NCBI RefSeq assembly: GCF_900119735.1
Contig: NZ_FPJW01000002.1
Location: forward strand, 186,001-250,000
DNA: 64,000 nt
DNA from: Marinospirillum alkaliphilum DSM 21637
GTDB taxonomy: Bacteria > Pseudomonadota > Gammaproteobacteria > Pseudomonadales > Halomonadaceae
Direction of reading: 5' to 3'
The notes under the pieces are model-generated. The model was not told the origin of the DNA and did not search any database. It worked only from the letters and a program-made list of their open reading frames with translations. The translations under genes were made by a program, and so were the position numbers. Position 1 is the first letter of the stretch; every line of letters starts with the position of its first letter. Shown in pieces: positions 7,015 to 23,090 of the stretch.

Positions 7015-7050
7015 GGTTCAACTCCTTGATATTATTGTTGGAAAACAGCT

Positions 7051-8238: not shown

Positions 8239-8266
8239 CTGTTGATCCTGTTGTGGATGAACCGGG

Positions 8267-9409
8267 TTATTTGCCCAGCAGGGAACGGGCGATCACTTCT
8301 TTCATGATTTCGGAGGTGCCGGCATAGATGGTCTGAATGCGGGCATCCACATAAAAACGTGAAATCGGGTATTCCAGGGTGTAACCATAACCACCGAATA
8401 ATTGCAGGCATTCATCAATGGTTTTGCACTGCATTTCACTCAGTTGCAGTTTCAGGATGGCGGCATCGGTCGGAGTCATCTGCCCCTGACGGTATTTGCT
8501 GACACAGCGGTCAAAATAGGCGCGGGCCATATCGATCTGGGCGCGAACTTCGGCCAGCTTGAAGCGGGTGTTCTGGAAATCGGCAATGCGCTGACCAAAG
8601 GCTTTGCGCTCTTTGACGTAATCCAGTGTGAGTGCCAAAGCACCTTCCATCGCACCCAGTGCCTGGGAGCCAACCCCCAGGCGCTCACGGGGAAGTTCCT
8701 GCATCAGGTAGCCAAACCCCGAGCCTTCCTGACCCAGCAGGGCATCGTCCGGCAGGATCATGGCATCAAAAAACAGTTCGGCAGTATCGCTGGCGTGCTG
8801 GCCGATTTTGTTGATGGCCTTGCCGCGGGAAAAACCGGGCAGGTGGGTATCCACCAGAAACAGCGAAACGCCTTTGGCACCGGCAGACGGATCGGTTTTG
8901 GCACAGACAATCACCAGGTCGGCCATCATGCCGTTGGTGATGAAGATTTTGGAGCCATCCAGCTGCCAGCCGCCTTCAACCTTCTGGGCACGGGTTTTCA
9001 TGGCGGCCAGATCACTGCCGGCACCGGGTTCGGTCATGGCAATGGCACCCATGACCTCTCCGGTAGCCATGCGTGGCAGCCACTGGTGTTTCTGAGCTTC
9101 TGTTGCCAGATGCTCCAGGTAGGGAATCACAATGTTGGAGTGAATGTTGTAGCCACTGGCCAGGCCGCCAAAACCGCGACGGGAAATCTCTTCAATCACC
9201 AGCTGGGTGATACCAAAATCAGCGCCTGTGCCGCCGTAGTCTTCGGACAGATCAATGGCCAGCATGCCGGCTTCACCCAGCTTCAGCCAGAAATCACGGG
9301 GTACCTGGTGTGCTGCTTCCCAGTTGTCATAATGTGGATCAGCCTCCTGTTCCAGAAAGCGGCAGATCATGTCATGAAAAAGCTGGGTGTTTTCGTCTGT
9401 TGCGGTCAT
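8267..9409 (-). CDS. Acyl-CoA dehydrogenase, LCAD/AcdA-like
   Basis: A 380-residue FAD enzyme that introduces the alpha-beta double bond into acyl-CoA. FAD/substrate motifs MTEPGAGSDL and KIFITNG are present, and the C-terminus has IYAGTSEIMKE. The usual catalytic Glu of short/medium-chain enzymes (YEGT) is Ala here. The helix-G segment QELPRERL (237-244) supplies Glu242, the position used by isovaleryl-CoA and long-chain dehydrogenases, so the protein should be active and of that subgroup. It overlaps the upstream ligase by four bases (ATGA). Confidence 0.92.
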   Translation of the reverse strand: MTATDENTQLFHDMICRFLEQEADPHYDNWEAAHQVPRDFWLKLGEAGMLAIDLSEDYGGTGADFGITQLVIEEISRRGFGGLASGYNIHSNIVIPYLEHLATEAQKHQWLPRMATGEVMGAIAMTEPGAGSDLAAMKTRAQKVEGGWQLDGSKIFITNGMMADLVIVCAKTDPSAGAKGVSLFLVDTHLPGFSRGKAINKIGQHASDTAELFFDAMILPDDALLGQEGSGFGYLMQELPRERLGVGSQALGAMEGALALTLDYVKERKAFGQRIADFQNTRFKLAEVRAQIDMARAYFDRCVSKYRQGQMTPTDAAILKLQLSEMQCKTIDECLQLFGGYGYTLEYPISRFYVDARIQTIYAGTSEIMKEVIARSLLGK

Positions 9410-10995
9410 TCCTGTGTTTCCTTAGAGAGTTCCTCGGATGTTTCTTCAGAGAGTTCTTTGCGCAGATTGCGTTTAAGAATTTTTCCTGCGGTGCTTTTAG
9501 GAAGCGTGGTACTGAAAAGAATTTTTTTCGGCAGCTTAAAAGGTGCCAGATGCTGACGAGCATGTTGAATCAACGCCTGTTCGGTTGTTTCCGAACCTTC
9601 CTTTAAAACAACCACTGCAGTGATGGCTTCAATCCACTTGTCATCAGGTAAACCTATGACGGCTACTTCTGAGACGGCCGGGTGGGTGAACAAGGCTTCT
9701 TCAACTTCCCTGCTGGCTACAACGACGCCACCAGTGTTAATGACGTCTTTGATGCGATCAACGATGTAGAGATAACCTGCTTCATCCATGTAACCCACAT
9801 CACCGGAATGGAACCAGCCACCCTGAAAGGCTTCTGCTGTCATCTCTGGTTTGTCCCAGTAACCGGTGAGTAACTGCGGGGAACGATGAACAATTTCTCC
9901 TTGTTGCCCCGGCGGTAAATCGTTCATCTCCAGATCCACAATGCGGGTTTCCACGGTGAGGATCGGGCGTCCTGCCGAAGCCGGGCGTTCGGCATGTTCC
10001 TCCGGCCGTAATACCGTTGCCAACGGGGCTATTTCACTTTGACCATAACAGTTGTAGAGCCCGACACCGGGCAGTCTTTGCTGGAGTTCCTGCAACACTG
10101 GCACCGGCATGATGGAAGCACCGTAATAGGCTTTTTTCAGGCTTTGCAGATCGCGTTGGTCAAAATCCGGATGGCGCAGCAGGGCAATCCAGAAGGTGGG
10201 CGGGGCAAAAAAGGAAGCAATGTTTTCCTGTTCGATCCAGTGCAGGCACAGATCAGGCAGAGGGCTTTCCATCAGGCGTATTGTTGCGCCACGTAAAAGC
10301 ACAGGCATCAGAAATACGTGCATCTGAGCCGAATGGTAAAGGGGCAGGGCCGCCAGCACCGGCTCGCCGGGTTCGATATCCAGCTCCACCATGCAGGCAA
10401 AATATTCTGCCATCAACGCCTTGTGCGTCATCATCGCGGCCTTGGGCGCTGCTGTGGTACCCGAGGTATACAAAAGCTGAGCCAGGTCATCGTCCTTGAT
10501 GCTGACCGGTGGAGCGCTGGCCGGTGTTTCGGCCAGTGCCAGCTGCAGCAGGCTGCTTTGCTGTGAATCCGTATGAAAATAAGTGCTGACGGCCAGTGAA
10601 AGGCCTTCGCAGGCCTGTTGAACTGCTGCCGAAAGGCTGATGTCGCTGACCAGTGCCCTGGCGCCGGACTGTCGCAGCACATAACGCAACTCTTCCGCGC
10701 TCAGGGCAAAATTGGTGGGCACATGCACCAACCCTGCACGCAGGCAGGCCAGCCAGGTGATGACATAGGCATCAGAGTTTTTGCCATAGGCCACCAGTCG
10801 GTCACCCTGCTGTAGCCCTTGCTGCAACAGGTGGTTGGCAACCCGGTCGGCTGCGGTGATCAGTTGTTGATAAGTCCAGGTACGGTCAAGAAATCTTATT
10901 GCCGTGCGTTGTGCATTCTTGCGCAGGCTGCGATTCAGGGCACTGCTGATGGTATGGGCTTGAGGCTGAAGATCAAGAGAAGCAATGGATGTCAT
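9406..10995 (-). CDS. Acyl-CoA synthetase (AMP-forming), FadD-like
   Basis: A second ANL ligase of 529 residues, clearly distinct from the one at 5356-7014. It has YTSGTTAAPKAA (176-187; the usual Gly after Thr is Ala), YGQSEIAP, GWFHSGDVGYMDEAGY, DRIKDVINTGG, and the C-terminal lysine region STAGKILKRNLR. It then carries a short acidic tail (SEETSEELSKETQE) that is not needed for the fold. It probably activates the acid that enters this operon's oxidation route. The next gene, the dehydrogenase, starts within its stop codon. Substrate unknown. Confidence 0.9.
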   Translation of the reverse strand: MTSIASLDLQPQAHTISSALNRSLRKNAQRTAIRFLDRTWTYQQLITAADRVANHLLQQGLQQGDRLVAYGKNSDAYVITWLACLRAGLVHVPTNFALSAEELRYVLRQSGARALVSDISLSAAVQQACEGLSLAVSTYFHTDSQQSSLLQLALAETPASAPPVSIKDDDLAQLLYTSGTTAAPKAAMMTHKALMAEYFACMVELDIEPGEPVLAALPLYHSAQMHVFLMPVLLRGATIRLMESPLPDLCLHWIEQENIASFFAPPTFWIALLRHPDFDQRDLQSLKKAYYGASIMPVPVLQELQQRLPGVGLYNCYGQSEIAPLATVLRPEEHAERPASAGRPILTVETRIVDLEMNDLPPGQQGEIVHRSPQLLTGYWDKPEMTAEAFQGGWFHSGDVGYMDEAGYLYIVDRIKDVINTGGVVVASREVEEALFTHPAVSEVAVIGLPDDKWIEAITAVVVLKEGSETTEQALIQHARQHLAPFKLPKKILFSTTLPKSTAGKILKRNLRKELSEETSEELSKETQE

Positions 10996-11006
10996 GGCCT
11001 GGCTCC

Positions 11007-12221
11007 TCAGTTGTTAACCATTTTGCAGACACTTTCTGACAGGGGACGGAAAGCCTCTTCTGCTGGAATGGTGCGGACAATTTCAAACAGGTCATCAGCG
11101 TTTCTGGACTCAGCCGGAGATTTCACACGCACCAGGTACATGTCATGAACCATGCGGCCATCCTCACGAATGTAGGCATTCTGAGCAAAGATGTCGTTCA
11201 CAGGGGTTTTCATCATCTGTTGACGAACGGCCTGGGTGTCATCCGTGCCAGCGGCTTTGACCGCTTGCAGGTAGTGCAAGGTGCTTGAATAAAGGCCGGC
11301 ATGCACCATGGTCGGCATCTGGCCGGTTCGTTCCTTGAAGCGTTCGGCCCAGGCACGAGCTTCCGGATTGATGTCGTAGTACCAGGCTTTGGTGAACTGC
11401 AAGCCCTGAGCAGTTTCCAGTCCCAGGCTGCGGATATCGCTGCTGAACAGCACCATGCCTGCCAGGATCTGGCCGGATTGAGTGATACCGAACTCACTGG
11501 CGGTCTGGATGGCATTGATGGTGTCATGACCTGCATTGTTGAGGCTGATGACCTTGGCACCTGATGCCTGAGCCTGCAGCATGAAAGATGCAAAATCAGT
11601 GGTTGGGAAGGGATGGCGTACCTTGCCAAGCACTCGCCCGCCACTTTCCTTGACGACTCGTTCAACATCAGCTTCGAGTGCATGACCGAAAGAATAGTCA
11701 GCACTTAGCAAAAACCAGTCTTTGTTACCTTCCTGGGTAATGGCGCGGGCTGTACCGTTGGACATCGCCCAGGTGTCGTAAACCCAGTGGAAGTGATTAG
11801 GTCCGCAATGCTGATTGGTGATGGCAGAAGACACGGCTCCGTTGACCAGTCCCAGTTTGTCGTTTTCTTCCAGTAAGCGAATGGCAGCGAGGGTTACTGA
11901 TGAAGCGACCAGTCCTGTAACCATGTCGACATTGCGCTCATCAATCCAGCTCCGAACCACGCTGGAACCCACATCCGGGCTGTTACGATCATCAGCACTG
12001 AAGGTGACAATTCTTGCGCCATTGATTTCACCGCCCATGTCATCAATGGCCATCTGGATGGCGTCCATCCCCCTTGGACCGATAGGATCACGATAAGCAC
12101 CTGTCATGTCAGCCAGATAACCGATGCGGATTTCATTATTGCTGTAGTTGGCTGATGCAGGTGCACTGGCTACGAAAATACTTGCCAATGCTGCCAATAC
12201 GATGTTTTTCTTGAGGTTCAT
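11007..12221 (-). CDS. Periplasmic substrate-binding protein, Leu/Ile/Val-type family
   Basis: A 404-residue type-1 periplasmic binding protein of the branched-chain amino acid ABC class. The ATG at 12221 is chosen because GGAG lies six bases upstream and it gives a clear signal peptide (MNLKKNIVLAALASIFVASA, cut near residue 23). The mature protein begins with IRIGYLADMTGAY, the usual first strand and loop. Two alpha/beta lobes follow. No permease or ATPase gene is nearby. It leads an operon of two acyl-CoA ligases, a dehydrogenase and a thiolase, so the ligand is probably a carboxylate that is then activated; such family members bind aromatic or fatty acids in other bacteria. Identity of the ligand is unknown. 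Confidence 0.9.
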   Translation of the reverse strand: MNLKKNIVLAALASIFVASAPASANYSNNEIRIGYLADMTGAYRDPIGPRGMDAIQMAIDDMGGEINGARIVTFSADDRNSPDVGSSVVRSWIDERNVDMVTGLVASSVTLAAIRLLEENDKLGLVNGAVSSAITNQHCGPNHFHWVYDTWAMSNGTARAITQEGNKDWFLLSADYSFGHALEADVERVVKESGGRVLGKVRHPFPTTDFASFMLQAQASGAKVISLNNAGHDTINAIQTASEFGITQSGQILAGMVLFSSDIRSLGLETAQGLQFTKAWYYDINPEARAWAERFKERTGQMPTMVHAGLYSSTLHYLQAVKAAGTDDTQAVRQQMMKTPVNDIFAQNAYIREDGRMVHDMYLVRVKSPAESRNADDLFEIVRTIPAEEAFRPLSESVCKMVNN

Positions 12222-12417
12222 TGCAAACTCCATTTTCTGCTGTTGTTTTTGTTTTTCCGGTAGGAATTCCGGTTTTTTCGGGGTTATACCGCCGATAGTT
12301 GTTTTTATCTTGTATGGCCTGGTCCATACTAGGTGGAAATCAAAGTCAGTGTTTGGCGTTTTGAGACATAAAATTTGCATTTCATGCCAATCTGTTCTGC
12401 TTTTCTGGAAGTGATCA

Positions 12418-13440
12418 ATGGAGCGTTACTCAGCCACTGTCCCCATCCACTTTGTCCACAACCTGTTGCAGGGGGTGGTGTTAAGCGATGCCCGGCGCAG
12501 ACGTTTGCTGTTGCAGGCAGGCATTCCCTTTTTTCTGCTGGATGCGCCGGGTGGCCGGGTGACGGTGGAGCAGTTTGCGCGACTTTATCGACTGCTGGTG
12601 AATGATTGTGATGATGAAACCCCCGGTTTTTTTTCGCGCCCCTTGCGAGGTGGAACGCTGAAGTTTCTTTGTCTGGGTTTGCTGGATGCACCCAATCTAC
12701 AGGTGGCGTTGCACCGTTATTGCCAGTTTTTCCGGGTGTTGCTGGATGATCTGGCTTATCGGCTGGTGGTGGAGGAAAAGCATGCAACCCTGCAGTTGAT
12801 CGAACATCGGAAGCCTTGTGGTCATCGTGTACTGGTGCACGAGCTGATGTTGAAGCTGGTGCATGGCATTGCCTCCTGGTTGATTGCTGAAAAGATTCCG
12901 CCGCAAGGGATCAGTTGCGCCTATGAACAGCCGGGGCACAGTTCTGAGTACCTTTATTTTTATCCGGGCCAGGTTCAGTTTGATCAGCCTTTCACTGCAC
13001 TGAGCTTTGATCGCGCCTTGTTGCGCAAACCCATCCGTCAGACCCGCAGGGAGCTGGGGTCTTTTTTACAGCGCGCACCGGCGGATTGGATTTATGTCTC
13101 TTTTGGTGATCGCCTGGTGGCACACCGGGTACGCGACTATCTGAGTGATGCTGAGCAGGTGGGTGCCAGTGTTGCTCAGGTGGCTGAAGCCTTGCACATG
13201 TCGGTGCGAACCCTGTCGCGCCGTCTGGCAGCAGAAGGCACCCGCTTCCAGTCGGTCAAGGATGAAGTTCGCCGTGATCTGGCGGTGCAACAGTTGACCT
13301 GCAGTGATTTGCCGCTGACACGTTTGGCGGAACAACTGGGTTTTGAAGACCTGCCCTCTTTCAGTCGAGCCTTTCGCCAGTGGACCGGCAGTACGCCGGG
13401 CAGCTACCGGCGTGGATTGTTGTACGGAAGGCTTGACTGA
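12418..13440 (+). CDS. AraC-family transcriptional regulator, OruR/arabinose-binding-domain type
   Basis: A 340-residue regulator. Residues about 20-200 form the ligand domain typical of the OruR/GbuR/ArgR-like group, and residues about 235-335 the double helix-turn-helix: VAEALHMSVRTLSRRLAAEG is the first and LAEQLGFEDLPSFSRAFRQW the second, with the usual TPGSYR after it. It is divergent from the binding-protein operon with 196 bases between the start codons, so it most likely activates that operon when the substrate is present. The signal molecule is unknown. Confidence 0.9.
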   Translation: MERYSATVPIHFVHNLLQGVVLSDARRRRLLLQAGIPFFLLDAPGGRVTVEQFARLYRLLVNDCDDETPGFFSRPLRGGTLKFLCLGLLDAPNLQVALHRYCQFFRVLLDDLAYRLVVEEKHATLQLIEHRKPCGHRVLVHELMLKLVHGIASWLIAEKIPPQGISCAYEQPGHSSEYLYFYPGQVQFDQPFTALSFDRALLRKPIRQTRRELGSFLQRAPADWIYVSFGDRLVAHRVRDYLSDAEQVGASVAQVAEALHMSVRTLSRRLAAEGTRFQSVKDEVRRDLAVQQLTCSDLPLTRLAEQLGFEDLPSFSRAFRQWTGSTPGSYRRGLLYGRLD

Positions 13441-13474: not shown

Positions 13475-13515
13475 AAAGACTTGAGCTATTGTATTAGTAT
13501 ATTATAAATTAGATT
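13475..13515 (+). promoter_or_regulatory. Promoter and AT-rich operator, copy 1
   Basis: Upstream of the MMPL operon. AAAGACTTG leads into a -35-like TTGAGC (13481-13486), then 16 bases, then a -10-like TATAAA (13503-13508). The 24-base element 13492-13515 (TATTAGTATATTATAAAT... ending AGATT) differs by one base from the element at 18490-18513 in front of the ArsR-family gene. It covers the spacer and the -10 box, the position expected for a repressor site. Confidence 0.65.
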
Positions 13516-13589
13516 GTTTTCATTTAATGGTGGTCAGTCTGCATGGTCTGCAGCACACCGTTCTGTATTGAGCTGAGAAGGGGTTACAA

Positions 13590-16175
13590 ATGGGCAAGAC
13601 GCTGGCCTTCTGGTGCATGGATCGATCTCGAGCCGTTTTTACGGCCGTGATACTTATGGTTCTGGCGCTGGGGATGATGATTCCGAAAATCATGATCGAT
13701 ACTGATCCGGAGAACATGCTTTCTGCCGAGCAGCCGGATCGCGTCAAGCATAATGAAATCAGGGACCGTTTTGGCCTGCATGACATGATTGTGGTGGGTC
13801 AGGTCAACACTCAGCACGCGCAGGGCGTTTTTAATCCGGAGTCTCTGGCGGCTCATTACGCCTTGACCCGCGCCATCGAACAGATGGATGGGGTGATTGC
13901 CCGTGATCTGATGTCCATGGCGGCTGTGGACAATGTTGAGCAGGCCGGTGTTGGCACCATCGCTTATGACTGGCTGATTCCATCACCCCCCGAGACACAG
14001 GAAGAGGCAGATCGCATCCGTGCGGCTGTTGAGCGTCTGCCCATGTATCAGGGTACGCTGGTGTCCGAGGATGGCCAGGCTGCTGCCTTGTTTGTTCCGC
14101 TTGAAAGCAAGGACATCAGTCACCGCATTGCCATGGAAATCCGGTCCGTGGTTGAAGGCCTGGGTGTGGCTGACGAGTTTCACATTACCGGCCAGCCGGT
14201 GGCTCAGGATACCTTTGGTGTGGAAATGTTCCAGCAGATGGCCATTTCCGCACCGCTGGCAGGTCTCGTGATCTTCCTGGCGATGCTGTATTTCTTCCGC
14301 AGCCTGCCACTGGTGATTGCACCGATGCTGCTGGCGATGGCTACGGTGATTTCCACCATGGGCCTGTTGATTGGCATGGGTTACACCGTGCACATCATGA
14401 GTTCGATGATTCCCATCTTTCTGATGCCGATTGCCGTGGTTGCCTCGGTGCATGTGCTGTCGAACTTTGCGGACCGTTATCGTCCCGGTGATGACCCCAG
14501 AGAGGTGATGGGTGATGTCATGGACAAGCTGTTCAAGCCGGTGTTGTTCACTGCGTTGACTACAGCCGTGGGTTTCCTTTCGCTATTGACCACGCCCATT
14601 CCTCCTGTGCAGGTGTTCGGTGGTTTCATTTCCTTTGGTGTGGTGGTGGCGCTGTTGCTGACTCTGGGTTTTATTCCCGCCTATACCGTGTCCTTGAAGC
14701 GTGAAACCCTGGACCGGATGGCTGAGAAGTTCCGCCGGAAAGAACTGGCTGATCAGCAGGCCAATAAGGACGGTGGTTTACTGGGTCGTATGGGGCGTTT
14801 CCCTGCACGCAAGCCCGGTATGGTGATTGGTCTGGTGGTGGCCGTACTGGTGGTGTCGGTGTATGGCATTCAACAGATCCAGATCAACGACAATCCAACG
14901 CTCTGGTTCAAGGAAGATCATCGCATTCGGATTGCCGACAAGGTTCTGAATGAGCGCTTTGCCGGTACCTATGAGGCTTACATCAATTTGCGCCAGACGG
15001 GCATTGAGCAACAGGTTGATGAGCTGCGCCGCTCCATTCAGCTGACGCTGGATGAGGCAGCTCGAGAAGGATTGGATCTGCGTTCAGCCTGGTCAGGCAT
15101 GTGGGAGGATTCAGCGGGTGCAGCTTCTCCCGGTGATCGTCTGGAAACGCTGGCAATGCTGATTGATGACCATCTGTTTGATGCTGAGCCGGAAGCACAG
15201 GATTACTGGATGGAGATTCTGGATCAGGTTGAAGCAGGTCGCACGGCAACGCGTGCCTTTCAGAATCCCGGTCATCTGGCCTGGATGGATGAGTTGAAAA
15301 ACCACCTGGAAAAAACCGGTGTAATCGGCAAGGCCAATTCGTTGGCTGACCTGGTGAAGACCATTAATCGTGAACTGGTGAGTGGTGACATGCAGGACTA
15401 TGTGTTACCGGATCGTGCCAATGGTGTGGCACAAACGATTCTCAGCTTCCAGTCTTCGCAGCGTCCGGATGATCTGTGGAACTTTGTGACCCGTGATTTC
15501 ACTCAGGCCAGCATCTGGTTGCAACTGCCCAGTGGTGACAACCAGGTGATGAGCCGGGTGGTTGATGCGGTTGATCGTTTTGTTGCCGACAACCCGCCGC
15601 CGGCAGGTGTTGAACTGGAATGGGGAGGTGGAACTTACATCAACCTGGTCTGGCAGGGTGAAATGGTGGAAGGCATGCTCTGGGCGCTGGGTTCAGCATT
15701 CATTGTGGTGCTGATCATGATGATTGCGCTGTTCCGCAGCCTGCTGCTGGGTGTGCTGGCGATGCTGCCGCTGACCATCACCATTGCAGCCATTTACGGG
15801 GTGATGGGTCTGATTGGCAAGGATTACGACATGCCGGTCGCTGTGCTTTCGTCTCTGTCTCTGGGACTGTCGGTCGATTTTGCGATTCACTTTATTCAGC
15901 GTTTGCGTATGGCGCTTGATGATGTCGGAGGTGACTGGAAGGCTGCCATGGATCAGGTTTTTGATGAGCCTGCCCGCGCCATTGTGCGTAATGCGGTGGT
16001 CATTGCCATAGGTTTCCTGCCCTTGCTGGCAGCGCCTCTGGTGCCCTACATCACGGTTGGTGTGTTCCTGGCCAGCATCATGGCAACTTCTGCGCTGGTC
16101 AGTCTGTTTGTGTTGCCTGCTTTCATTGCCCTGGCGCCGCGTGCAGTACTGGGTAAAGCAGTCAAAAGCGTCTGA
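13590..16175 (+). CDS. MMPL/RND-family transporter
   Basis: An 861-residue inner-membrane transporter with two repeated halves. Each half has one helix, a periplasmic domain, then five helices: residues about 15-32, 221-236, 240-262, 272-291, 318-334 and 345-365 in the first half; the second half begins near 410 and its cluster lies near 685-850. Helix two to four carry the sterol-sensing-like SMIPIFLMPIAVVASVHVLS and the second-half LSSLSLGLSVDFAIHF, with Asp and His where MMPL/HpnN-type proteins place proton-relay residues. It is first of three co-directional genes with a LolA-like protein and a beta-barrel, so it probably exports a lipid or other hydrophobic molecule. The ATG has AAGGGG seven bases upstream. 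Confidence 0.9.
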   Translation: MGKTLAFWCMDRSRAVFTAVILMVLALGMMIPKIMIDTDPENMLSAEQPDRVKHNEIRDRFGLHDMIVVGQVNTQHAQGVFNPESLAAHYALTRAIEQMDGVIARDLMSMAAVDNVEQAGVGTIAYDWLIPSPPETQEEADRIRAAVERLPMYQGTLVSEDGQAAALFVPLESKDISHRIAMEIRSVVEGLGVADEFHITGQPVAQDTFGVEMFQQMAISAPLAGLVIFLAMLYFFRSLPLVIAPMLLAMATVISTMGLLIGMGYTVHIMSSMIPIFLMPIAVVASVHVLSNFADRYRPGDDPREVMGDVMDKLFKPVLFTALTTAVGFLSLLTTPIPPVQVFGGFISFGVVVALLLTLGFIPAYTVSLKRETLDRMAEKFRRKELADQQANKDGGLLGRMGRFPARKPGMVIGLVVAVLVVSVYGIQQIQINDNPTLWFKEDHRIRIADKVLNERFAGTYEAYINLRQTGIEQQVDELRRSIQLTLDEAAREGLDLRSAWSGMWEDSAGAASPGDRLETLAMLIDDHLFDAEPEAQDYWMEILDQVEAGRTATRAFQNPGHLAWMDELKNHLEKTGVIGKANSLADLVKTINRELVSGDMQDYVLPDRANGVAQTILSFQSSQRPDDLWNFVTRDFTQASIWLQLPSGDNQVMSRVVDAVDRFVADNPPPAGVELEWGGGTYINLVWQGEMVEGMLWALGSAFIVVLIMMIALFRSLLLGVLAMLPLTITIAAIYGVMGLIGKDYDMPVAVLSSLSLGLSVDFAIHFIQRLRMALDDVGGDWKAAMDQVFDEPARAIVRNAVVIAIGFLPLLAAPLVPYITVGVFLASIMATSALVSLFVLPAFIALAPRAVLGKAVKSV

Positions 16176-16198
16176 TAACCCCGTAAGGAGGAGAAACC

Positions 16199-17002
16199 AT
16201 GAATTTGTTAAAAATCACCAGTGGTCTGGTCGGAGGCTTTGCCCTGCTGATGAGTGGCAGCCTGGTATTGGCTGCACCACCGGTCAGTGAAATCATCGAA
16301 CGTGCCAATCAGGCTTCTTACTACGCTGGCAGGGATGGTCGTTCCGAGGCGCGGATGCGGATTGAAGATAACCGTGGTCGTACGCAGACTCGCCAGTTCA
16401 GTGTATTGCGTAAGAATGTTGAAGGCAGTGATGAACAGAAGTATCTGGTGGTGTTCAGTCGTCCATCAGAGTTTCGTGGCACCGTATTCCTGGTTCATAA
16501 AAACCCTGCCGCAGACGATGATCGCTGGTTATATCTGCCTGATCTGGATCTGGTTCGTCGTATTGCACCCGGTGACAAGCGTACCAGTTTTGTTGGCGCA
16601 CATATCTTCTACGAGGATATATCCGGCCGGAATCTGAACGAAGATCGCCATGAGTTGCTGGAGGAAACCGATCAGCATTATGTGCTGAAATCCACTCCAA
16701 AGGCACCGGGGTCGGTGGAGTTTGCCAGCTTCCAGACCTGGATTGACAAGGAAACCTTCCTGCCGGTTCGCATCGAATACACCAATGCTGTCGGCGAGGT
16801 TTACCGCATCATGGAAAACGCCAATATCGAGGTGGTTGATGGTTATCCAACACCGATGATGATGCGAGTTCAGGATCTGCAATCCGGTGGCAATACGGTT
16901 GTTCAGTTCCGAGGTGTCAGTTATGACCTGGGTATTCCTGATGCGGTGTTCACCGAGCGCAGTTTGCGTAATCCCCCCGCCGAGTGGCTGGATCGGAGGT
17001 AA
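16199..17002 (+). CDS. LolA-like outer membrane lipoprotein-sorting family protein
   Basis: A 267-residue exported protein: signal peptide 1-24 ending SLVLA, then a fold resembling LolA/LolB and the family labelled outer membrane lipoprotein-sorting protein (COG2834). Recognisable phrases are RMRIEDNRGRTQTRQFSVLR near the start and KYLVVFSRPSEFRGTVFLV, then DRWLYLPDLDLVRRI. Such proteins accompany MMPL transporters in many gammaproteobacteria and may carry a hydrophobic cargo across the periplasm. It follows the MMPL gene by 23 bases and its stop lies two bases before the next start. It is not the housekeeping LolA. Confidence 0.88.
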   Translation: MNLLKITSGLVGGFALLMSGSLVLAAPPVSEIIERANQASYYAGRDGRSEARMRIEDNRGRTQTRQFSVLRKNVEGSDEQKYLVVFSRPSEFRGTVFLVHKNPAADDDRWLYLPDLDLVRRIAPGDKRTSFVGAHIFYEDISGRNLNEDRHELLEETDQHYVLKSTPKAPGSVEFASFQTWIDKETFLPVRIEYTNAVGEVYRIMENANIEVVDGYPTPMMMRVQDLQSGGNTVVQFRGVSYDLGIPDAVFTERSLRNPPAEWLDRR

Positions 17003-17004
17003 GC

Positions 17005-18369
17005 ATGGGTGCTGAACAACTCAAGGGGTTGCTGGGTGCGGCTGTGATGGCTCTTGGCCTGGCCGCTTCTCCCTTGTCGGCAGATGACTGGGCTGGTTCC
17101 GGAGATGACTGGGGGGGTGACTGGGAGGATGAGTCTGAGTCTCGCTTTCCATTCCGGGTCGGTGGTTTCATTGAGGCCGCCGGTGGCATGCACCTGTATG
17201 ACAACAAGGCGGTTGATGATCGTATCGGCAAAAACTACAACCTGGGTGAAACCCGTTTGCGTCTGGATATTGACGGAGACTGGCAGGCACTGGGTTACAG
17301 CCTCAAGGTTGATGGTGTTGCTGATGGTGTTGATGAAGAACTGCGTGCAGAGCTGCGCGAAGCGCTGGTCAGTTTTGAACTGGGTGACCGCACGGATGTG
17401 CGTGCCGGTCGCCAGGTGCTGACCTGGGGAACCGGTGACCTGTTATTCATCAACGATCTCTTCCCCAAGGACTGGCAGTCCTTTCTGATCGGTCGGGATG
17501 AAGACTATCTGAAGGGCCCATCGGATGCATTGCGCATCACTCGTTATGGTGATGAGGTCACCCTGGATCTGGTCTGGACACCGGTTTTCAATCGAGACAA
17601 CTACCCGGACGGGGATCGTTTGTCTTATTGGGGGCAGACAGGAGGCAATGAGTTCGGCTTAACAGCCGAACCCATTTCGGATAATGCCCGGGAACCCGGC
17701 AGCTTCCCCGGTGATGGTGAGGTGGCTTTACGTCTGGCCACACGCCAGTCCGGTGTTGAGTATGCCTTGTATGGTTACCGGGGCTTCTGGCCTCAACCCA
17801 ATGATGCACGCAAGACCCTTGCAGGTGGCAAGCTGGAGCACCCGGTATTGCATGTGTATGGTGCCAGCCTGAGGCGAGGTATGGGGCCGGGGCTGTTCAA
17901 TGCCGAAGTGGGTTATTACGACTCACGGGACTACGACAACGCTGGCTTCAACGCGGCGCTGACACCCAACTCAGAAGTGCGCATTCTGATGGGATATGAC
18001 TGGGAACTGGTCACCAACCTGAATGTGGGTGTTCAGTACTATCTGGAATGGACGCTGGATCATGATGAGCTGGAAAAAGCCTTTCAGGATATGGGTATGA
18101 AAGAAATGGCCGGTGAAGAATACCGCCAGCTGCTGACCACGCGTCTGACCTACACCCAGATGCGCGGTGATCTGATGTGGTCGCTGTTTGCTTTTGTATC
18201 GCCCAGTGATGATGACTTTTACCTGCGTCCGAGTGTGCGTTACCGGGTTTCCGATGAATTGACGGTCAGTGCCGGAGGCAACCTTTTTGGTGGCAAGGAG
18301 GACTACAGTTTCTTTGGGCAGTTTGAAAAGGATTCAAATGTTTACCTGAGGGCCAGGTATCGTTTCTGA
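17005..18369 (+). CDS. Outer-membrane beta-barrel protein, DUF1302-like
   Basis: A 454-residue predicted outer-membrane protein. The ATG at 17005 has GGAGG five bases upstream and gives a signal peptide ending near SPLSA. The mature N-terminus is very acidic and Trp-rich (DDW repeated three times within about 20 residues), followed by a barrel of alternating strands that ends RARYRF, the terminal Phe used by the BAM machinery. The motif RAGRQVLTWGTGDLLFINDL resembles DUF1302/alginate-export-like porins. Last gene of the MMPL operon; it probably provides the outer-membrane exit or entry for the same molecule. Confidence 0.85.
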   Translation: MGAEQLKGLLGAAVMALGLAASPLSADDWAGSGDDWGGDWEDESESRFPFRVGGFIEAAGGMHLYDNKAVDDRIGKNYNLGETRLRLDIDGDWQALGYSLKVDGVADGVDEELRAELREALVSFELGDRTDVRAGRQVLTWGTGDLLFINDLFPKDWQSFLIGRDEDYLKGPSDALRITRYGDEVTLDLVWTPVFNRDNYPDGDRLSYWGQTGGNEFGLTAEPISDNAREPGSFPGDGEVALRLATRQSGVEYALYGYRGFWPQPNDARKTLAGGKLEHPVLHVYGASLRRGMGPGLFNAEVGYYDSRDYDNAGFNAALTPNSEVRILMGYDWELVTNLNVGVQYYLEWTLDHDELEKAFQDMGMKEMAGEEYRQLLTTRLTYTQMRGDLMWSLFAFVSPSDDDFYLRPSVRYRVSDELTVSAGGNLFGGKEDYSFFGQFEKDSNVYLRARYRF

Positions 18370-18404
18370 TCTCCTGGTTGGATGTTGCATTGAGACCGAT
18401 TGAG

Positions 18405-18435
18405 CAAGGGTCAGCCTGAGTCAGGTTGGCCCTTG
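18405..18435 (+). terminator. Strong hairpin after the beta-barrel gene
   Basis: A near-perfect inverted repeat: CAAGGGTCAGCCTGA pairs with TCAGGTTGGCCCTTG through 15 positions including two G-T wobbles, with almost no loop. It lies 36 bases after the beta-barrel stop and before the next promoter. No U-tract follows, so it may stabilise the 3' end of the transcript rather than terminate alone. Confidence 0.5.
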
Positions 18436-18471
18436 TGCGTTGTGGGGTGGCGGTTATCAGCAATGTTGAAA

Positions 18472-18513
18472 AAAGACTTGCACTTACTATATTAGTATAA
18501 TATAAATTAGATT
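18472..18513 (+). promoter_or_regulatory. Promoter and AT-rich operator, copy 2
   Basis: Upstream of the ArsR-family gene. AAAGACTTG runs into a -35-like TTGCAC (18478-18483), then 17 bases and a -10-like TATAAA (18501-18506). The element 18490-18513 is the near-identical partner of 13492-13515. Within it 18489-18503 is a perfect inverted repeat, ATATTA-GTA-TAATAT, as expected for a dimeric winged-helix repressor. The start codon is only 28 bases downstream of the element. This suggests the regulator represses itself and the MMPL operon. Confidence 0.7.
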
Positions 18514-18540: not shown

Positions 18541-18837
18541 ATGGATATTGAAACCATGCAATGTCAGGCCCGGGCAGCAACCGAGTTGCTGCAGGCTTGT
18601 GCCCATCCTGCTCGTCTGGTGCTACTCTGCCAGTTGAGCCAGGAGGAACTGAATGTGGGTGAGCTGGAGCAGCGACTGGGTATTCACCAGCCGAGCTTGT
18701 CCCAGCAGTTGGGCGTATTGCGCCGTCAGGGGTTGATTGAGGGGCGGCGTGAAGGGCAGTTGATCTTTTATCGGCTGGCCAATGAAGAGGCTCGTGAGTT
18801 GATTCAAAGCCTGTACCGCATCTATTGCAACAAGTGA
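18541..18837 (+). CDS. ArsR-family regulator of the HlyU/BigR/SqrR/YgaV type
   Basis: A 98-residue winged-helix dimeric regulator. The phrases LLQACAHPARLVLLCQL, VGELEQRLGIHQPSLSQQL and QLIFYRLANEEARELIQSL follow YgaV, HlyU and BigR closely. It lacks the CxCxxC metal site of ArsR/SmtB. Cys30 (in LLCQL) and Cys96 (in IYCNK) are 66 residues apart, the same spacing as the redox pair in SqrR (41/107) and BigR (42/108), which form a disulfide or polysulfide link with sulfane sulfur and leave DNA. Cys8 and Cys20 are extra. It is first in an operon with an RND adaptor and pump. The ATG at 18541 has only a weak ribosome site. The sulfur-sensing role is inferred from the cysteines. Confidence 0.88.
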   Translation: MDIETMQCQARAATELLQACAHPARLVLLCQLSQEELNVGELEQRLGIHQPSLSQQLGVLRRQGLIEGRREGQLIFYRLANEEARELIQSLYRIYCNK

Positions 18838-18861: not shown

Positions 18862-19878
18862 ATGAAAAGATCCTGGTTGGGTCTGGCAGTGGTGATGCTG
18901 TCAGGCTTTTCATTACAGGCTCAGGCACTGGAAAGCCAGCCGGTGCAGCGTGCACCTCTGACTGAAAGCATTCAGCTGGATGGTGTGATTGAGGCTGTGC
19001 GTCAGGCGACGGTATCGGCCCAGACCAGTGGTCAGGTGCGTCGCATTCACTTTGATGTGGATGATGCGGTGGCACCGGGTCAGGTGATTGTGGAGCTGAA
19101 TGATACCGAGCAGCGTGCCCGCCTGAATCAGGCTGAAGCCGGTTTGCGTGAGGCAGAAGCCGGGCTGAATGATGCCCGCCAGAATTTCAGTCGTGTGGAA
19201 GGACTGGTGCAGCGTGAGCTGGCGCCGCGAGCCCAGCTGGATCAGGCCCGTAACCAGTTGAATGCGGCGGAAGCGCGCCTGAGTCGTGCTCAGGCAGCGG
19301 TGGCCGAAGCGCGTCAGCAACTGGCTTATACCCGGGTGATTGCACCCTATGGTGGCATCGTGACAGCTCGCCATGTGGAGGAAGGCGCTTCAGTGAACCC
19401 CGGCCAGCCGTTGATCAGTGGCTTGTCGCTGGAGGAGCTGCGTGTGGTGGTGGCCCTGCCGCAGCGTTATGCGGCTTCAGCCCGGCAGCAGCGTGAGGCT
19501 CAGGTGATGTTGATGGATGGTCGTGTGCTGGAAACGGACGGCATGACTTTTTATCCCTATGCTGATCCGGCCACTCATACCTTTCGGGTGCGCATGAACC
19601 TTAAAAATCCTGAAGGGGATCTGTTCCCCGGCATGCTGGTGAAAGTCAGCCTGCCGGTGGCTGAGCGCTCTGCCTTGTGGATTCCGTCTGCAGCACTGGT
19701 GCAGCGCGGTGAACTGCGTGCCGTTTATGTGCTGAATGCTGAAGGCCAGCCACGCCTGCGTCAGGTGCGTGTTGGCAGTCGTGCCAATGGGCAGATTGAG
19801 GTGTTGTCCGGTCTGGGAGAGGGCGAGCTGTTGGTGTTGAACCCAGCGGCCGCTTTGGCACGTCTGGAGGCTGAATGA
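18862..19878 (+). CDS. RND efflux periplasmic adaptor subunit
   Basis: A 338-residue membrane-fusion protein of the AcrA/MexA class. Signal peptide 1-21 ends LQAQA. The lipoyl halves are near residues 45-75 (TVSAQTSGQVRRIHFDVDD, then GQVIVEL) and near 155-185 (TRVIAPYGGIVTARHVEEG); between them lies a helical hairpin rich in Glu, Ala and Arg. Beta-barrel and membrane-proximal domains follow. There is no N-terminal lipobox Cys. It joins the inner-membrane pump encoded next to an outer-membrane channel; no TolC-like gene is in this operon. The start is 24 bases after the regulator gene, with GGAG upstream. Confidence 0.93.
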   Translation: MKRSWLGLAVVMLSGFSLQAQALESQPVQRAPLTESIQLDGVIEAVRQATVSAQTSGQVRRIHFDVDDAVAPGQVIVELNDTEQRARLNQAEAGLREAEAGLNDARQNFSRVEGLVQRELAPRAQLDQARNQLNAAEARLSRAQAAVAEARQQLAYTRVIAPYGGIVTARHVEEGASVNPGQPLISGLSLEELRVVVALPQRYAASARQQREAQVMLMDGRVLETDGMTFYPYADPATHTFRVRMNLKNPEGDLFPGMLVKVSLPVAERSALWIPSAALVQRGELRAVYVLNAEGQPRLRQVRVGSRANGQIEVLSGLGEGELLVLNPAAALARLEAE

Positions 19879-22800
19879 TGAGCGAATCACCGCGTCTGGG
19901 TCTGTCCGGCCGTATTGCTGCGGCCTTTCAGACCTCCCGTCTGACCCCGTTGCTGGCACTGGCCGGTCTGCTGATGGGGCTGTTTGCCGTGACGGTGACG
20001 CCCAAGGAAGAGGAACCCCAGATTGATGTCACTATGGCCGATGTGTTCATCGGTTTTCCCGGTGCCAGCCCCGTGGAAGTTGAACAGCTGGTGGTGATTC
20101 CTGCCCAGCAGGTGCTGAGTGAAATGGCCGGTGTGGAGCACGTCTACTCTGTGTCCCGGCATGGCATGGGCATGGTGACGGTGCAGTTTGCCGTGGGTGT
20201 ACCGCGTCAGGAGGCCCTGGTCACCCTTTATAACCAGATTTACTCCAACCAGGACTGGCTGCCGCAAAATCTGGGCACCCTGCCACCCTTGATCAAGGCC
20301 AAGGGCATTGATGATGTGCCAATCATGGCGCTGACCCTGTTCAGTGATGATCCGTTGGTGACTGCTGAAGACCTGACCCGTGTGGCACATACACTGGAAA
20401 CAGAGCTTAAGCGCATTCCCGGAACCCGTGACATCTATACCCTCGGGGGTGTTCGTGATGAACTGCAGGTGATCTTGGACCCTGCGCGTCTGCGGGGTTA
20501 TGGCCTGGAATTGAATGACCTTCAGATGGCATTGCAGGCCGCCAATGCCACCTCTCAACAAGCCTGGGTGGTACAGGATGGTGTGGCGATTCCGGTGCAG
20601 GCCGGCACCCTGTTGACTCAGGTTGAAGAAGTGCAGCGCCTGGTGGTTGGCATGCATGACGGTGCGCCGGTATTTCTGGAAGATGTGGCAGAAGTGGTAC
20701 GTGGCGGCAAGGTGCCATCGGCGGGTGTGATGACTGGTTTTGGTCCTGCCGGTGAGCGCTCGGCGGGTCATCTTGCACAGGCTGTGACGCTGGCGATTGC
20801 CAAACAGCCCGGCCAGAATGCCATCGACATCACCCGTGCCATCGGTGACCGTCTGGAATTACTGCAGGATCGGGTGATTCCTGAAGGTGTTGAAGTGCTG
20901 GTGACGCGTGATTACGGTTACACCGCAGCCGACAAGTCCAATACCCTGATCACCAAACTGCTGTTTGCCACCGGATCGGTGGTGATTCTGGTGCTGGCTG
21001 CACTGGGCTGGCGCCAGGCATTGATTGTGGGCATTGCGGTGATCATCACCCTGGCCATGACCTTGTTTTTCTCCTGGGCCTGGGGTTTCACCCTGAACCG
21101 GGTATCCCTGTTTGCATTGATTTTTTCCATCGGCATTCTGGTCGATGATGCCATCGTGGTGGTGGAGAATATCCACCGGCACCTGCAGCTGGGTGCCAAA
21201 TCCCTGGTGGAAGCCATTCCAAAAGCAGTGGATGAGGTGGGTGGCCCAACCATTCTGGCAACCTTCACGGTGATTGCAGCCCTGCTGCCCATGGCTTTTG
21301 TATCCGGCCTGATGGGCCCTTACATGAGTCCGATCCCGATCAATGCCTCCGCCGGTATGCTGATTTCGCTGATCATTGCTTTTGTGGTGACCCCCTGGTT
21401 GGCCGTTAAGCTGATGAAGCATGAACACCACGACAGCCATGGTGCCGGTGAAGCGCAGGGTGAGCAGGCCTCAGGCAAGATGCTGCGCCTGTTTGAAAAA
21501 CTGATGCGTCCTTTCCTGGGTGACAACCGCAAGCGGCGCTGGATGCTGGGTGGCTCGGTGGTGGGTCTGACCCTGGCCGCAGCGCTATTGCCCGTAACTC
21601 TGGCGGTGGTGATGAAAATGCTGCCGTTTGATAACAAGTCTGAGTTTCAGGTGATTGTTGACATGCCGGAAGGTACACCGGTGGAGCAGACCCAGCGGGT
21701 GCTGCTGGCACTGGGTGAATACCTGGAAACAGTGCCGGAAGTGATGCACTGGCAGTCTTATGCCGGTACTGCTGCACCGATCAACTTCAATGGTCTGGTG
21801 CGTCAGTATTACCTGCGTGCCGAGCCCCACATGGGTGACTTGCAGGTGAACCTGGTGGATCGTCGTGATCGCAAGCGGGAGTCACACCCGATTGCCTTGT
21901 CGGTGCGTGAACCACTGCAGCGTATTGGTGCGGAATTTGGTGCCAATGTCAAAATTGTGGAAGTGCCACCGGGCCCGCCGGTACTGGCTCCCATTGTTGC
22001 TGAAATTTACGGACCGGATGCTGAGGTGCGTGCTGCGGTGGCGCGTCAGGTTGAGGCTTTGCTGCAGGGAACTGAGGGTATTGTTGATGTGGACACCACC
22101 CTGGAAGCACCGGCCAGCCGCTGGCTGATCGAAGTGGATCGTGACCGGGCGGCACGTCTGGGTGTGGCGCAGGCTCAGGTGGTGCAGGCACTCTCGATGG
22201 CGTTGGGCCAGGTGGAAGTGAGCTTCCTGCATGATGAAGGCATGAAGTATCCGGTACCGATTCGTCTGCAACTGGCCGAAGGCGACAAGGCTCAGGCATC
22301 CCGCTTGCTGTCCCTTGCGGTGCGCAGCCGCAGCGGGCAACTGGTCAGTCTGTCTGAGTTTGCCAGGGTCACACCCACCGATTGGCAGGGTGCCATTTAT
22401 CACAAGGATCTGTTGCCGGTGACCTATGTCACTGCTGACATGGCCGGTCGTCTGGATTCGCCGCTGTATGGCATGTTTGATGCGGTGTTTACGCTGGCAG
22501 GCCAGCCGAATGCACCTCAGCAGTATTTCATCAGTCAGCCGGACTGGCCTGCCACAGCCGCCATCAAATGGGATGGTGAATGGCAGATCACCTATGAAAC
22601 CTTCCGTGACATGGGCATTGCTTATGCCGTGGGTATGATCCTGATTTACATGCTGGTGGTGGCACAGTTCAAGTCTTATCTGGTGCCGCTGGTGATCATG
22701 GCCCCGATTCCGCTGACGCTGATTGGCATCATGCCGGGGCATGCCTTGCTGGGTGCACAGTTCACCGCCACCAGCATGATCGGCATGATTGCACTGGCTG

Positions 22801-23090
22801 GCATTATCGTGCGCAACTCCATTCTGCTGGTGGATTTCATCAACCAGCAGCTGGCGGAAGGCAGCAACTGGGAGGATGCAGTGATTCAGGCCAGTGCCGT
22901 GCGTGCCCAACCGATCATCCTGACGGCTTTGGCAGCCATGGTCGGTGGTTTCTTCATCATTGATGATCCGATCTTCAACGGTCTGGCCATTGCATTGATC
23001 TTCGGTCTGCTGGTTTCCACCCTGCTGACGCTGGTGGTGATTCCGCTGTTGTATTATGCGTTGTATCGTCACCGGGGTGTGCCGGGTTAA
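19875..23090 (+). CDS. RND efflux pump, inner-membrane permease
   Basis: A 1071-residue proton-driven pump of the AcrB superfamily. The fourth-helix relay motif GILVDDAIVVVENIHRHL carries the paired Asp residues; GFPGASPVEVEQLVVIP marks the first porter subdomain. Twelve helices and two large periplasmic loops are evident, with a His-rich cytosolic loop (HEHHDSHGAGE) between the halves. It looks more like the VexK/heterogeneous HAE1 pumps than AcrB itself. Substrate unknown. It overlaps the adaptor stop; ATG codons at 19875 and 19878 are both possible, the second with better spacing from GGAGG. A perfect terminator follows. Confidence 0.93.
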   Translation: MMSESPRLGLSGRIAAAFQTSRLTPLLALAGLLMGLFAVTVTPKEEEPQIDVTMADVFIGFPGASPVEVEQLVVIPAQQVLSEMAGVEHVYSVSRHGMGMVTVQFAVGVPRQEALVTLYNQIYSNQDWLPQNLGTLPPLIKAKGIDDVPIMALTLFSDDPLVTAEDLTRVAHTLETELKRIPGTRDIYTLGGVRDELQVILDPARLRGYGLELNDLQMALQAANATSQQAWVVQDGVAIPVQAGTLLTQVEEVQRLVVGMHDGAPVFLEDVAEVVRGGKVPSAGVMTGFGPAGERSAGHLAQAVTLAIAKQPGQNAIDITRAIGDRLELLQDRVIPEGVEVLVTRDYGYTAADKSNTLITKLLFATGSVVILVLAALGWRQALIVGIAVIITLAMTLFFSWAWGFTLNRVSLFALIFSIGILVDDAIVVVENIHRHLQLGAKSLVEAIPKAVDEVGGPTILATFTVIAALLPMAFVSGLMGPYMSPIPINASAGMLISLIIAFVVTPWLAVKLMKHEHHDSHGAGEAQGEQASGKMLRLFEKLMRPFLGDNRKRRWMLGGSVVGLTLAAALLPVTLAVVMKMLPFDNKSEFQVIVDMPEGTPVEQTQRVLLALGEYLETVPEVMHWQSYAGTAAPINFNGLVRQYYLRAEPHMGDLQVNLVDRRDRKRESHPIALSVREPLQRIGAEFGANVKIVEVPPGPPVLAPIVAEIYGPDAEVRAAVARQVEALLQGTEGIVDVDTTLEAPASRWLIEVDRDRAARLGVAQAQVVQALSMALGQVEVSFLHDEGMKYPVPIRLQLAEGDKAQASRLLSLAVRSRSGQLVSLSEFARVTPTDWQGAIYHKDLLPVTYVTADMAGRLDSPLYGMFDAVFTLAGQPNAPQQYFISQPDWPATAAIKWDGEWQITYETFRDMGIAYAVGMILIYMLVVAQFKSYLVPLVIMAPIPLTLIGIMPGHALLGAQFTATSMIGMIALAGIIVRNSILLVDFINQQLAEGSNWEDAVIQASAVRAQPIILTALAAMVGGFFIIDDPIFNGLAIALIFGLLVSTLLTLVVIPLLYYALYRHRGVPG

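What the first reader, a model, noticed from the sequence alone, without database searches (positions are those of the whole stretch)
13475..18513. Two transport operons share a duplicated promoter and operator
The promoters at 13475-13515 and 18472-18513 both carry AAAGACTTG, then 8-9 bases, then a 24-base AT-rich element that is 23 of 24 identical and overlaps a TATAAA -10 box. Copy 2 contains the perfect inverted repeat ATATTA-GTA-TAATAT. One copy precedes the regulator and RND pump genes, the other the MMPL, LolA-like and beta-barrel genes. A match this long between two promoters is not chance. It suggests one repressor controlling both operons, most likely the ArsR-family protein encoded at 18541.
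Basis: partly seen in the sequence, partly recalled or inferred. Interest (0 to 1): 0.75.

Follow-up and report, generated by a model that had tools for sequence, protein, structure and literature searches.

The report
Shared switch for two export pumps
Two neighbouring pump operons in a marine bacterium start with the same short DNA switch, and the way related species have rearranged these operons suggests that one small sulfide-sensor-like repressor controls both; the control itself is of an ordinary kind, but the pumps it governs are unusual targets.

Summary
A 24-base element (23 of 24 identical) sits in both promoters and nowhere else in the genome at up to 3 mismatches; no other 24-base pair in the window is as close. 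The genome is a Marinospirillum. In 8 of 8 genus genomes a version of the 20-base core precedes these operons: 10 copies, 9 within 1 mismatch, one (G007) with 4. The operons are shuffled between species and the ArsR gene travels with either one, yet the element stands first each time. The ArsR protein is of the two-cysteine BigR/SqrR/HlyU/YgaV type, both sensor cysteines kept in 8 of 8. Most likely it represses both operons by covering the -10 region and lets go when reactive sulfur species link C30 and C96. Of 69 loci with a relative, 44 have a persulfide-dioxygenase-like gene within 4 kb. Four Halomonadaceae loci have the same ArsR-MMPL-LolA-barrel order; two Paraburkholderia loci have a 58%-identical RND permease beside arsR. 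Binding, repression and inducer are untested. New variant of a known kind.

The parts
13492..13511 (+). E1: 20-base core TATTAGTATATTATAAATTA (24-base match to E2 runs to 13515); presumed operator over the promoter of the MMPL operon; core ends 78 nt before the MMPL start codon
18490..18509 (+). E2: core TATTAGTATAATATAAATTA (24-base match runs to 18513); presumed operator over the promoter of the arsR-MFP-RND operon; core ends 31 nt before the arsR start codon
18488..18504 (.). 17-base perfect inverted repeat TATATTA-GTA-TAATATA inside E2; perfect in 2 of 10 genus copies
13475..13483 (+). AAAGACTTG before E1; its TTG begins the presumed -35 (TTGAGC, spacer 16 to TATAAA)
18472..18480 (+). AAAGACTTG before E2; its TTG begins the presumed -35 (TTGCAC, spacer 17 to TATAAA)
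18541..18837 (+). arsR: 98-aa two-cysteine ArsR regulator of the BigR/SqrR/HlyU/YgaV type (C30, C96); proposed regulator of both operons
18862..19878 (+). RND periplasmic adaptor (MFP)
   Evidence: TIGR01730 237.3 bits (cut-off 94.9)
19875..23090 (+). RND permease (AcrB/AcrD/AcrF family); overlaps the adaptor gene by 4 bases
   Evidence: PF00873 540.2 bits (cut-off 28)
13590..16175 (+). MMPL-type RND transporter; best NCBIfam match HAE3 (TIGR00921, below its cut-off)
16199..17002 (+). LolA-like periplasmic protein (PF17131)
   Evidence: 188.9 bits (cut-off 30)
17005..18369 (+). probable outer-membrane beta-barrel with signal-peptide-like start (judged by eye); DUF1302 match below cut-off; strand-rich but low-confidence model
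18404..18436 (+). strong hairpin (15 pairs, 3-nt loop; the 56-nt piece folded gives -29.9 kcal/mol, z -4.65) between the MMPL operon and E2; no T run and not listed by the terminator scan, so not a canonical terminator
12418..13440 (+). AraC-type regulator directly upstream of E1; precedes the first E in 7 of 8 genomes, no orthologue in G007; considered as the binder of E and held less likely

Best explanation
E is the operator of the ArsR protein encoded at 18541. A dimer binds the AT-rich core that covers the spacer and -10 region of both promoters and blocks RNA polymerase, so it represses its own operon (arsR-MFP-RND) and, in trans, the MMPL-LolA-barrel operon. When reactive sulfur species (persulfides, polysulfides) link C30 and C96, the repressor lets go and both export systems are made together. 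Shown here: the element, its confinement to these operons, its conservation in the genus while flanks diverge, its constant place before arsR, the protein type and the conserved cysteine pair. Inferred: binding, repression, and the sulfur trigger (the last from characterised relatives and from neighbour genes of relatives).
For: Only two copies in the genome at up to 3 mismatches. In 8 genus genomes the ten core copies lie before arsR (8), MFP (1) or MMPL (1); a profile made from them has these ten as its top hits at 20.8-27.9 bits (by construction), the next of 16 listed scores 15.3; no hit at E 0.05 in 56 other genomes of the family. Core ends 30-32 nt before the arsR start in 8 of 8 arsR copies. 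Control upstream regions share less: best 20-mer averages 13.5 of 20 for the arsR paralogue (5 genomes) and 15.7 for the dioxygenase (4 of 7 loci parsed; a T-rich terminator), against 19.3 taking E1 and 18.3 taking E2 as reference (7 other genomes). arsR is with MFP-RND in G000, G002 (contig ends in MFP), G005, G006, G007 and with MMPL-LolA-barrel in G001, G003, G004; in G000 and G001, which have both operons, each has its own E. Best solved relatives by sequence BigR, SqrR, HlyU, then YgaV; SqrR, BigR and HlyU lead by fold; C30 and C96 in 8 of 8. Characterised relatives form disulfide or polysulfide bridges and leave DNA, and BigR binds its -10 region (PMC5823870, passages; PMC10509353, passages; PMC12423496, section 6). 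Of 69 loci with a relative, 44 have a Blh-like dioxygenase gene within 4 kb.
Against: No binding or expression data. NCBIfam's BigR equivalog is missed (116.8 bits, cut-off 155). The usual partner gene, the dioxygenase, is not beside E in this genus (0 of the 4 Marinospirillum loci). A clear dyad, expected for a dimer, is perfect in only 2 of 10 copies. The most divergent copy (G007, 4 mismatches) lies before an ordinary arsR, in the one genome without AraC, which could also be read as E decaying after loss of AraC. Outside the genus the link is not universal: L048 (Halomonas) has dioxygenase and arsR but no MMPL trio, and 6 of 9 order-level MMPL loci show no arsR.
Confidence: 0.77

Rival explanations
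1. The AraC-type protein at 12418, whose gene directly precedes E1, binds E and activates the operon behind it. (The rivals overlap one another, so the odds need not add up to one.)
For: Its gene lies immediately before the first E in 7 of 8 genomes; the one genome without it (G007) has the most divergent E.
Against: G007 (95% complete) has no orthologue but keeps a version of E before arsR; E2 and the second copy of G001 are not next to it; E overlaps the presumed -10, an unusual place for an activator (general knowledge).
Confidence: 0.08
2. E is only a strong, conserved sigma-70 promoter core without its own regulator.
For: It overlaps the presumed -10 region: a TTG hexamer lies 16-18 nt before TATAAA in 9 of 10 copies and before TATCTA in G007.
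Against: The conserved block includes the spacer (TATTAGTATA), which a promoter does not need; close copies occur at these operons only; the two other upstream regions compared are not conserved like this.
Confidence: 0.09
3. The ArsR protein binds E but works mainly as an activator or anti-silencer, as HlyU does.
For: HlyU is a close structural relative and activates hlyA (PMC4330345, passages).
Against: HlyU's site lies about 173 bp upstream of the hlyA start; here the element lies over the presumed -10 region, as described for BigR.
Confidence: 0.08
4. The two copies are a recent duplication within this genome (or gene conversion) without shared control.
For: E1 and E2 share AAAGACTTG before and GATT after the core, which the other eight copies lack.
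Against: The core is kept in 8 genomes, also those with one operon, while flanks diverge; G001 has two copies with different flanks.
Confidence: 0.05

Closest known systems
BigR (Xylella, Agrobacterium, Acinetobacter) regulon
   Same: Two-Cys ArsR repressor type; best solved relative by sequence; BigR recognises the -10 region of its operon (PMC5823870, passages)
   Different: The Xylella/Agrobacterium operon carries the sulfur transferase/dioxygenase Blh, the Acinetobacter one a dioxygenase and two putative transport proteins (PMC7315123, passages); here the genes behind the element are two export systems and the dioxygenase lies elsewhere without the element
SqrR, SoxR, sHdrR and YgaV sulfane-sulfur-responsive ArsR regulators
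   Same: Cysteine pair and fold; PMC12423496 (section 6) notes RND pumps among the neighbours of two-Cys ArsR genes
   Different: The SqrR motif ATTC-N8-GAAT given in PMC9774250 (passages) is not in the core; target genes differ
HlyU of Vibrio
   Same: Fold and cysteine pair; AT-rich site TAATTCAGACTAAATTA (PMC4330345, passages)
   Different: Site far upstream of the promoter and activation of toxin genes; here -10 overlap before pump genes
AmeABCD, HAE3-type RND system of Castellaniella (monoterpene efflux)
   Same: HAE3-type RND transporter with a LolA-superfamily periplasmic protein and a DUF1302 outer-membrane protein (PMC6394551, passages)
   Different: Three genes here, no second periplasmic protein; DUF1302 match below cut-off; the gene order differs

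Membership tests
Two-Cys sulfur-responsive ArsR (BigR/SqrR/HlyU/YgaV type) | ArsR winged helix-turn-helix fold | tested here: met
   PF01022 41.8 bits, cut-off 22; model pLDDT 90.9; top fold matches SqrR, BigR, HlyU
Two-Cys sulfur-responsive ArsR (BigR/SqrR/HlyU/YgaV type) | Conserved cysteine pair, one in the second helix and one at the C-terminal helix | tested here: met
   C30 and C96 in 8 of 8 Marinospirillum and invariant in the 11-row alignment; line up with BigR, SqrR and HlyU cysteines
Two-Cys sulfur-responsive ArsR (BigR/SqrR/HlyU/YgaV type) | Loses DNA binding when sulfane sulfur bridges the cysteines | not testable with these tools
   needs purified protein
BigR in the strict sense (NCBIfam NF040642) | Score above the equivalog cut-off 155 | tested here: not met
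   116.8 bits; relatives beside dioxygenase genes (L047 113.9, L042 116.8) miss it too
BigR in the strict sense (NCBIfam NF040642) | Operon with Blh-type persulfide dioxygenase | tested here: not met
   71%-identical relative of the Halomonas gene at G000:C18:114138, not beside E or arsR; near arsR in 44 of 69 loci of relatives
BigR in the strict sense (NCBIfam NF040642) | Operator over the -10 region of its own promoter | tested here: inconclusive
   position of E fits; binding untested, exact -10 not settled
AmeABCD-type HAE3 system | HAE3 RND transporter | tested here: inconclusive
   best NCBIfam match TIGR00921 188.8 bits, cut-off 351.9
AmeABCD-type HAE3 system | LolA-superfamily periplasmic protein | tested here: met
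   PF17131 188.9 bits, cut-off 30; DUF1329 (AmeB's family) 26.5 bits, cut-off 23.1
AmeABCD-type HAE3 system | DUF1302 outer-membrane protein | tested here: inconclusive
   17.5 bits, cut-off 23.2; strand-rich but low-confidence model, pLDDT 54.4
AmeABCD-type HAE3 system | Second periplasmic protein (AmeC) | tested here: not met
   three contiguous genes, 13590-18369, with no further gene between them

The most novel reading that the evidence does not exclude
One persulfide-sensing repressor has given up the sulfide-oxidising enzymes and become the dedicated switch of two different envelope-spanning export systems that stand in for each other: six of eight species keep only one of the two behind the switch, two keep both, each with its own copy. 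If so, both pumps would answer the same stress, for instance export of sulfur-damaged or hydrophobic sulfur compounds.
Probability: 0.3. Interest if true: 0.62.

Novelty: new variant of a known kind. Interest (0 to 1): 0.42.

Why it matters
Two-cysteine ArsR repressors are best known for switching on sulfide-detoxifying enzymes; their link to RND pumps has been noted from gene neighbourhoods (PMC12423496, section 6). Here nature supplies a comparison: the same switch sits before either or both of two different export systems in eight related species. If the regulator binds, the genus gives a small regulon (two operons found) in which to ask what such pumps export during sulfur stress, and it places the MMPL-LolA-barrel trio, for whose substrate my searches listed no paper on these genes, in a stress-response setting.

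Tried and rejected
Sigma-54 promoter for the Marinospirillum dioxygenase: the GGCAGGG-T block is part of a terminator hairpin (read by eye). Relic of arsR between E and the first gene of the arsR-less operons: only exact matches of 7-10 bases at E 0.14 or worse. A conserved dyad: the best centres give 6.0 of 10 paired positions on average and three centres tie; E2's repeat is not general. Which arrangement is ancestral: the ArsR tree does not resolve G000, G001, G003 and G004. The MMPL trio is not bound to this regulator everywhere: of 9 order-level loci, 6 show no arsR (L204 starts 0.5 kb before the gene, L205 ends inside it), and the ArsR proteins of L200 and L201 lack the cysteine pair. Structure model of the barrel too poor for a fold search, which was not run. 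Rfam and tRNA scans of the window gave nothing, the tandem-repeat scan one short repeat.

Limits: the RND permease was not searched genome-wide; absence of MFP-RND from G003 (77% complete) and G004 (99%) rests on the adaptor search and on the locus; absence of MMPL from G002 (87% complete), G005, G006 and G007 rests. G002's contig ends inside the adaptor gene, so its permease was not seen. Three hits at 3 mismatches and the hit at 15.3 bits (G005:C1:212012, one of those three) were not looked at further. The two-Cys count (55 of 69) comes from a rough pattern that misses true pairs (L056, counted as lacking it, has it); I do not rest on it. The dioxygenase count (44 of 69) includes 4 Marinospirillum loci, none of which has it, and short contigs where it could not be seen. 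The dioxygenases of L047 and L075 score 409.5 and 383.9 bits with the Blh model, below its cut-off of 625, because only its dioxygenase part (from position 140 or 141) is matched. One search printed upstream regions of 50 loci; five (L012, L013, L015, L016, L017) were in the wrong orientation, of which the first four genomes were read anew and L017 was dropped. One search looked at 35 of 69 loci. In one search at most 150 candidates per genome were scored, at most 126 with stricter filters. The dioxygenase control used 4 of 7 loci because the start pattern missed three. Names such as sulfide:quinone reductase and SulP for neighbours of the dioxygenase in L167 were given by eye and come from no call.
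Full report
What was claimed and what is there. It is the only 24-mer pair with at most one mismatch in the window; 20 of 20 Markov sequences of the same length had none, and shuffled versions of the two intergenic regions reached at most 19 of 24 in 200 trials. Genome-wide, the 24-mer with up to 3 mismatches has two places, these two. AAAGACTTG alone is common (16 places, reversed control 45).

Setting. Two of the genus relatives are named records, Marinospirillum minutulum (L039, the genome handled as G006) and M. perlucidum (L051, G001), so the window is from a Marinospirillum (Gammaproteobacteria, Oceanospirillaceae). The order is AraC regulator (12418), E1, MMPL transporter, LolA-like protein, probable beta-barrel, a strong hairpin (18404-18436; the 56-nt piece folds at -29.9 kcal/mol, z -4.65, no T run), E2, arsR, RND adaptor, RND permease. 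The hairpin and the 120 bases between barrel gene and E2 fit two separate transcription units; this is inference.

Footprint across the genus. The core TATTAGTATATTATAAATTA was sought in 8 genomes with up to 3 mismatches: it appears at 0-1 mismatch in 7 of 8, nine copies in all, all in this locus; three further hits at 3 mismatches (one each in G005, G002, G007) lie elsewhere, against two for the reversed control. G007 has a 4-mismatch version before arsR. Aligned on the core, the ten copies keep 14 of 20 core columns invariant and 5 more at 90%, while bases on either side vary; in 8 of 8 copies before arsR the core ends 30-32 nt before the start codon. A profile of the ten copies finds them again at 20.8-27.9 bits, by construction; the next of the 16 hits listed in 8 genomes is at 15.3, and 56 other genomes of the family give none at E 0.05. 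As controls, upstream regions of the arsR paralogue (5 genomes) and of the dioxygenase (4 of 7 loci parsed) share at best a 20-mer averaging 13.5 and 15.7 of 20, against 19.3 (reference E1) or 18.3 (reference E2) over 7 other genomes for the element. The controls cover fewer genomes than the element does.

Shuffled operons. Four arrangements were found. A: AraC-E-arsR-MFP-RND in G005 and G006 (M. minutulum), in G002 as far as its contig reaches, and without AraC in G007. B: AraC-E-arsR-MMPL-LolA-barrel in G003 and G004. C: AraC-E-MFP-RND-E-arsR-MMPL-LolA-barrel in G001 (M. perlucidum). D, the window: AraC-E-MMPL-LolA-barrel-E-arsR-MFP-RND. The adaptor has no close relative in G003 and G004 (best 29% and 33% identity), the MMPL transporter none in G002, G005, G006 and G007 (best partial matches 21-23%, E 4e-10 or worse). 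So arsR occurs with either operon, and in the two genomes with both, the operon without arsR has its own E. I take this as the strongest evidence that the protein of arsR reads E at both operons. E1 and E2 of this genome also share flanking bases that the other eight copies lack, which suggests a promoter duplication or conversion in this lineage. The tree of ArsR does not settle which arrangement came first.

The regulator. By sequence the best solved relatives are BigR (2.3e-26), SqrR, HlyU and then YgaV; the model (pLDDT 90.9) matches SqrR, BigR and HlyU best. C30 and C96 fall on the sensor cysteines of these proteins and are kept in 8 of 8 Marinospirillum proteins and in all 11 rows of a wider alignment, as is QPSLSQ of the recognition helix (helix assignment by general knowledge). 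In the characterised relatives sulfane sulfur or H2S links the two cysteines and DNA is released (PMC12423496, section 6; PMC10509353, passages; PMC5823870, passages). BigR is described as recognising the -10 region of its operon, which is where E seems to lie here: a TTG hexamer stands 16-18 nt before TATAAA in 9 of 10 copies and 17 nt before TATCTA in G007. The simple scan places the -10 of E2 differently, misses E1, and finds no more promoter-like sites than shuffles do, so the promoter reading rests on the genus alignment, not on that scan. NCBIfam's strict BigR model is missed (116.8 bits against 155), so I call the protein a two-cysteine ArsR of this type, not BigR.

Link to sulfur stress. 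Of 69 loci that encode a relative (4 of them Marinospirillum), 44 have a Blh-like dioxygenase gene within 4 kb, none of the Marinospirillum ones; two of these enzymes were checked and match the dioxygenase part of the Blh model, below that model's whole-length cut-off. In four Halomonadaceae loci (L043, L047, L050, L056) the ArsR gene is followed by the same MMPL-LolA-barrel trio, with the dioxygenase gene upstream on the same strand; a fifth (L048) has dioxygenase and arsR but another gene behind. In two Paraburkholderia loci (L070, L075) a 58%-identical RND permease with a less similar adaptor (30-31%) lies on the other strand beside arsR, in L075 behind a dioxygenase gene. Both pump types therefore meet this regulator type outside Marinospirillum. 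In Marinospirillum the dioxygenase is elsewhere and close copies of E are not there. From the other side: of 9 non-own loci with an MMPL orthologue among 145 genomes of the order (E 1e-100 or better), 8 have the trio complete (the ninth is cut off), 3 have an ArsR-type gene divergent from it, and one of these three (L202) has the cysteine pair. The gap of L202 repeats ATTAGTA, a string also present in E; this is suggestive only.

What the pumps may do. The MMPL protein's best curated match is the HAE3 family (below its cut-off). A related assembly, AmeABCD of Castellaniella, takes part in tolerance to and efflux of apolar monoterpenes (PMC6394551, passages). A protein with MMPL and LolA-like domains and a neighbouring porin rise on long-chain alkane in Thalassolituus (PMC6304351, passages). 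Hydrophobic compounds are therefore the likely class; the substrate here is unknown.

Novelty. Seven searches for papers listed, by title and start of abstract, no paper on this element or on a two-cysteine ArsR controlling an MMPL-LolA-barrel operon; only openly licensed papers are held and most listed papers were not opened, so this is weak evidence. That RND pumps neighbour such regulators is in print. I rate it a new variant of a known kind.

Noticed in passing
window 5356-12380 (minus strand): Divergent acyl-CoA type cluster (two AMP ligases, thiolase, acyl-CoA dehydrogenase, substrate-binding protein; names by eye) next to the AraC gene; conserved in G004, G005, G006, but G001 lacks the substrate-binding protein and second ligase at this place.
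   Followed up: no
G007 (L116): G007, 95% complete, has no orthologue of the AraC gene, and its version of E is the most divergent of the ten (4 mismatches); whether the two are linked is unknown.
   Followed up: partly
G000:C13:589369-589653 (L149): A second two-cysteine ArsR gene, 45% identical to the first, with no close copy of E upstream; a match at 45-47% identity is present in all 8 genus genomes.
   Followed up: partly
L202:7109-7291: Between a divergent two-Cys ArsR gene and an MMPL trio in another family of the order, the string ATTAGTA and its complement TACTAAT recur.
   Followed up: no
L047, L050, L056 upstream of arsR: Halomonadaceae arsR promoters carry a long different dyad with outer arms ACAATATAC and GTATATTGT or looser variants, about 40 bases end to end (by eye).
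   Followed up: no
G000:C18:114138-115001 (L167): The dioxygenase gene of this genome lies in what looks by eye like a sulfide-oxidation cluster, without the element E.
   Followed up: partly
window 26908-26940: Only tandem repeat listed for the window: 12-base unit, 2.8 copies, inside the frame of a gene that looks like truD.
   Followed up: no
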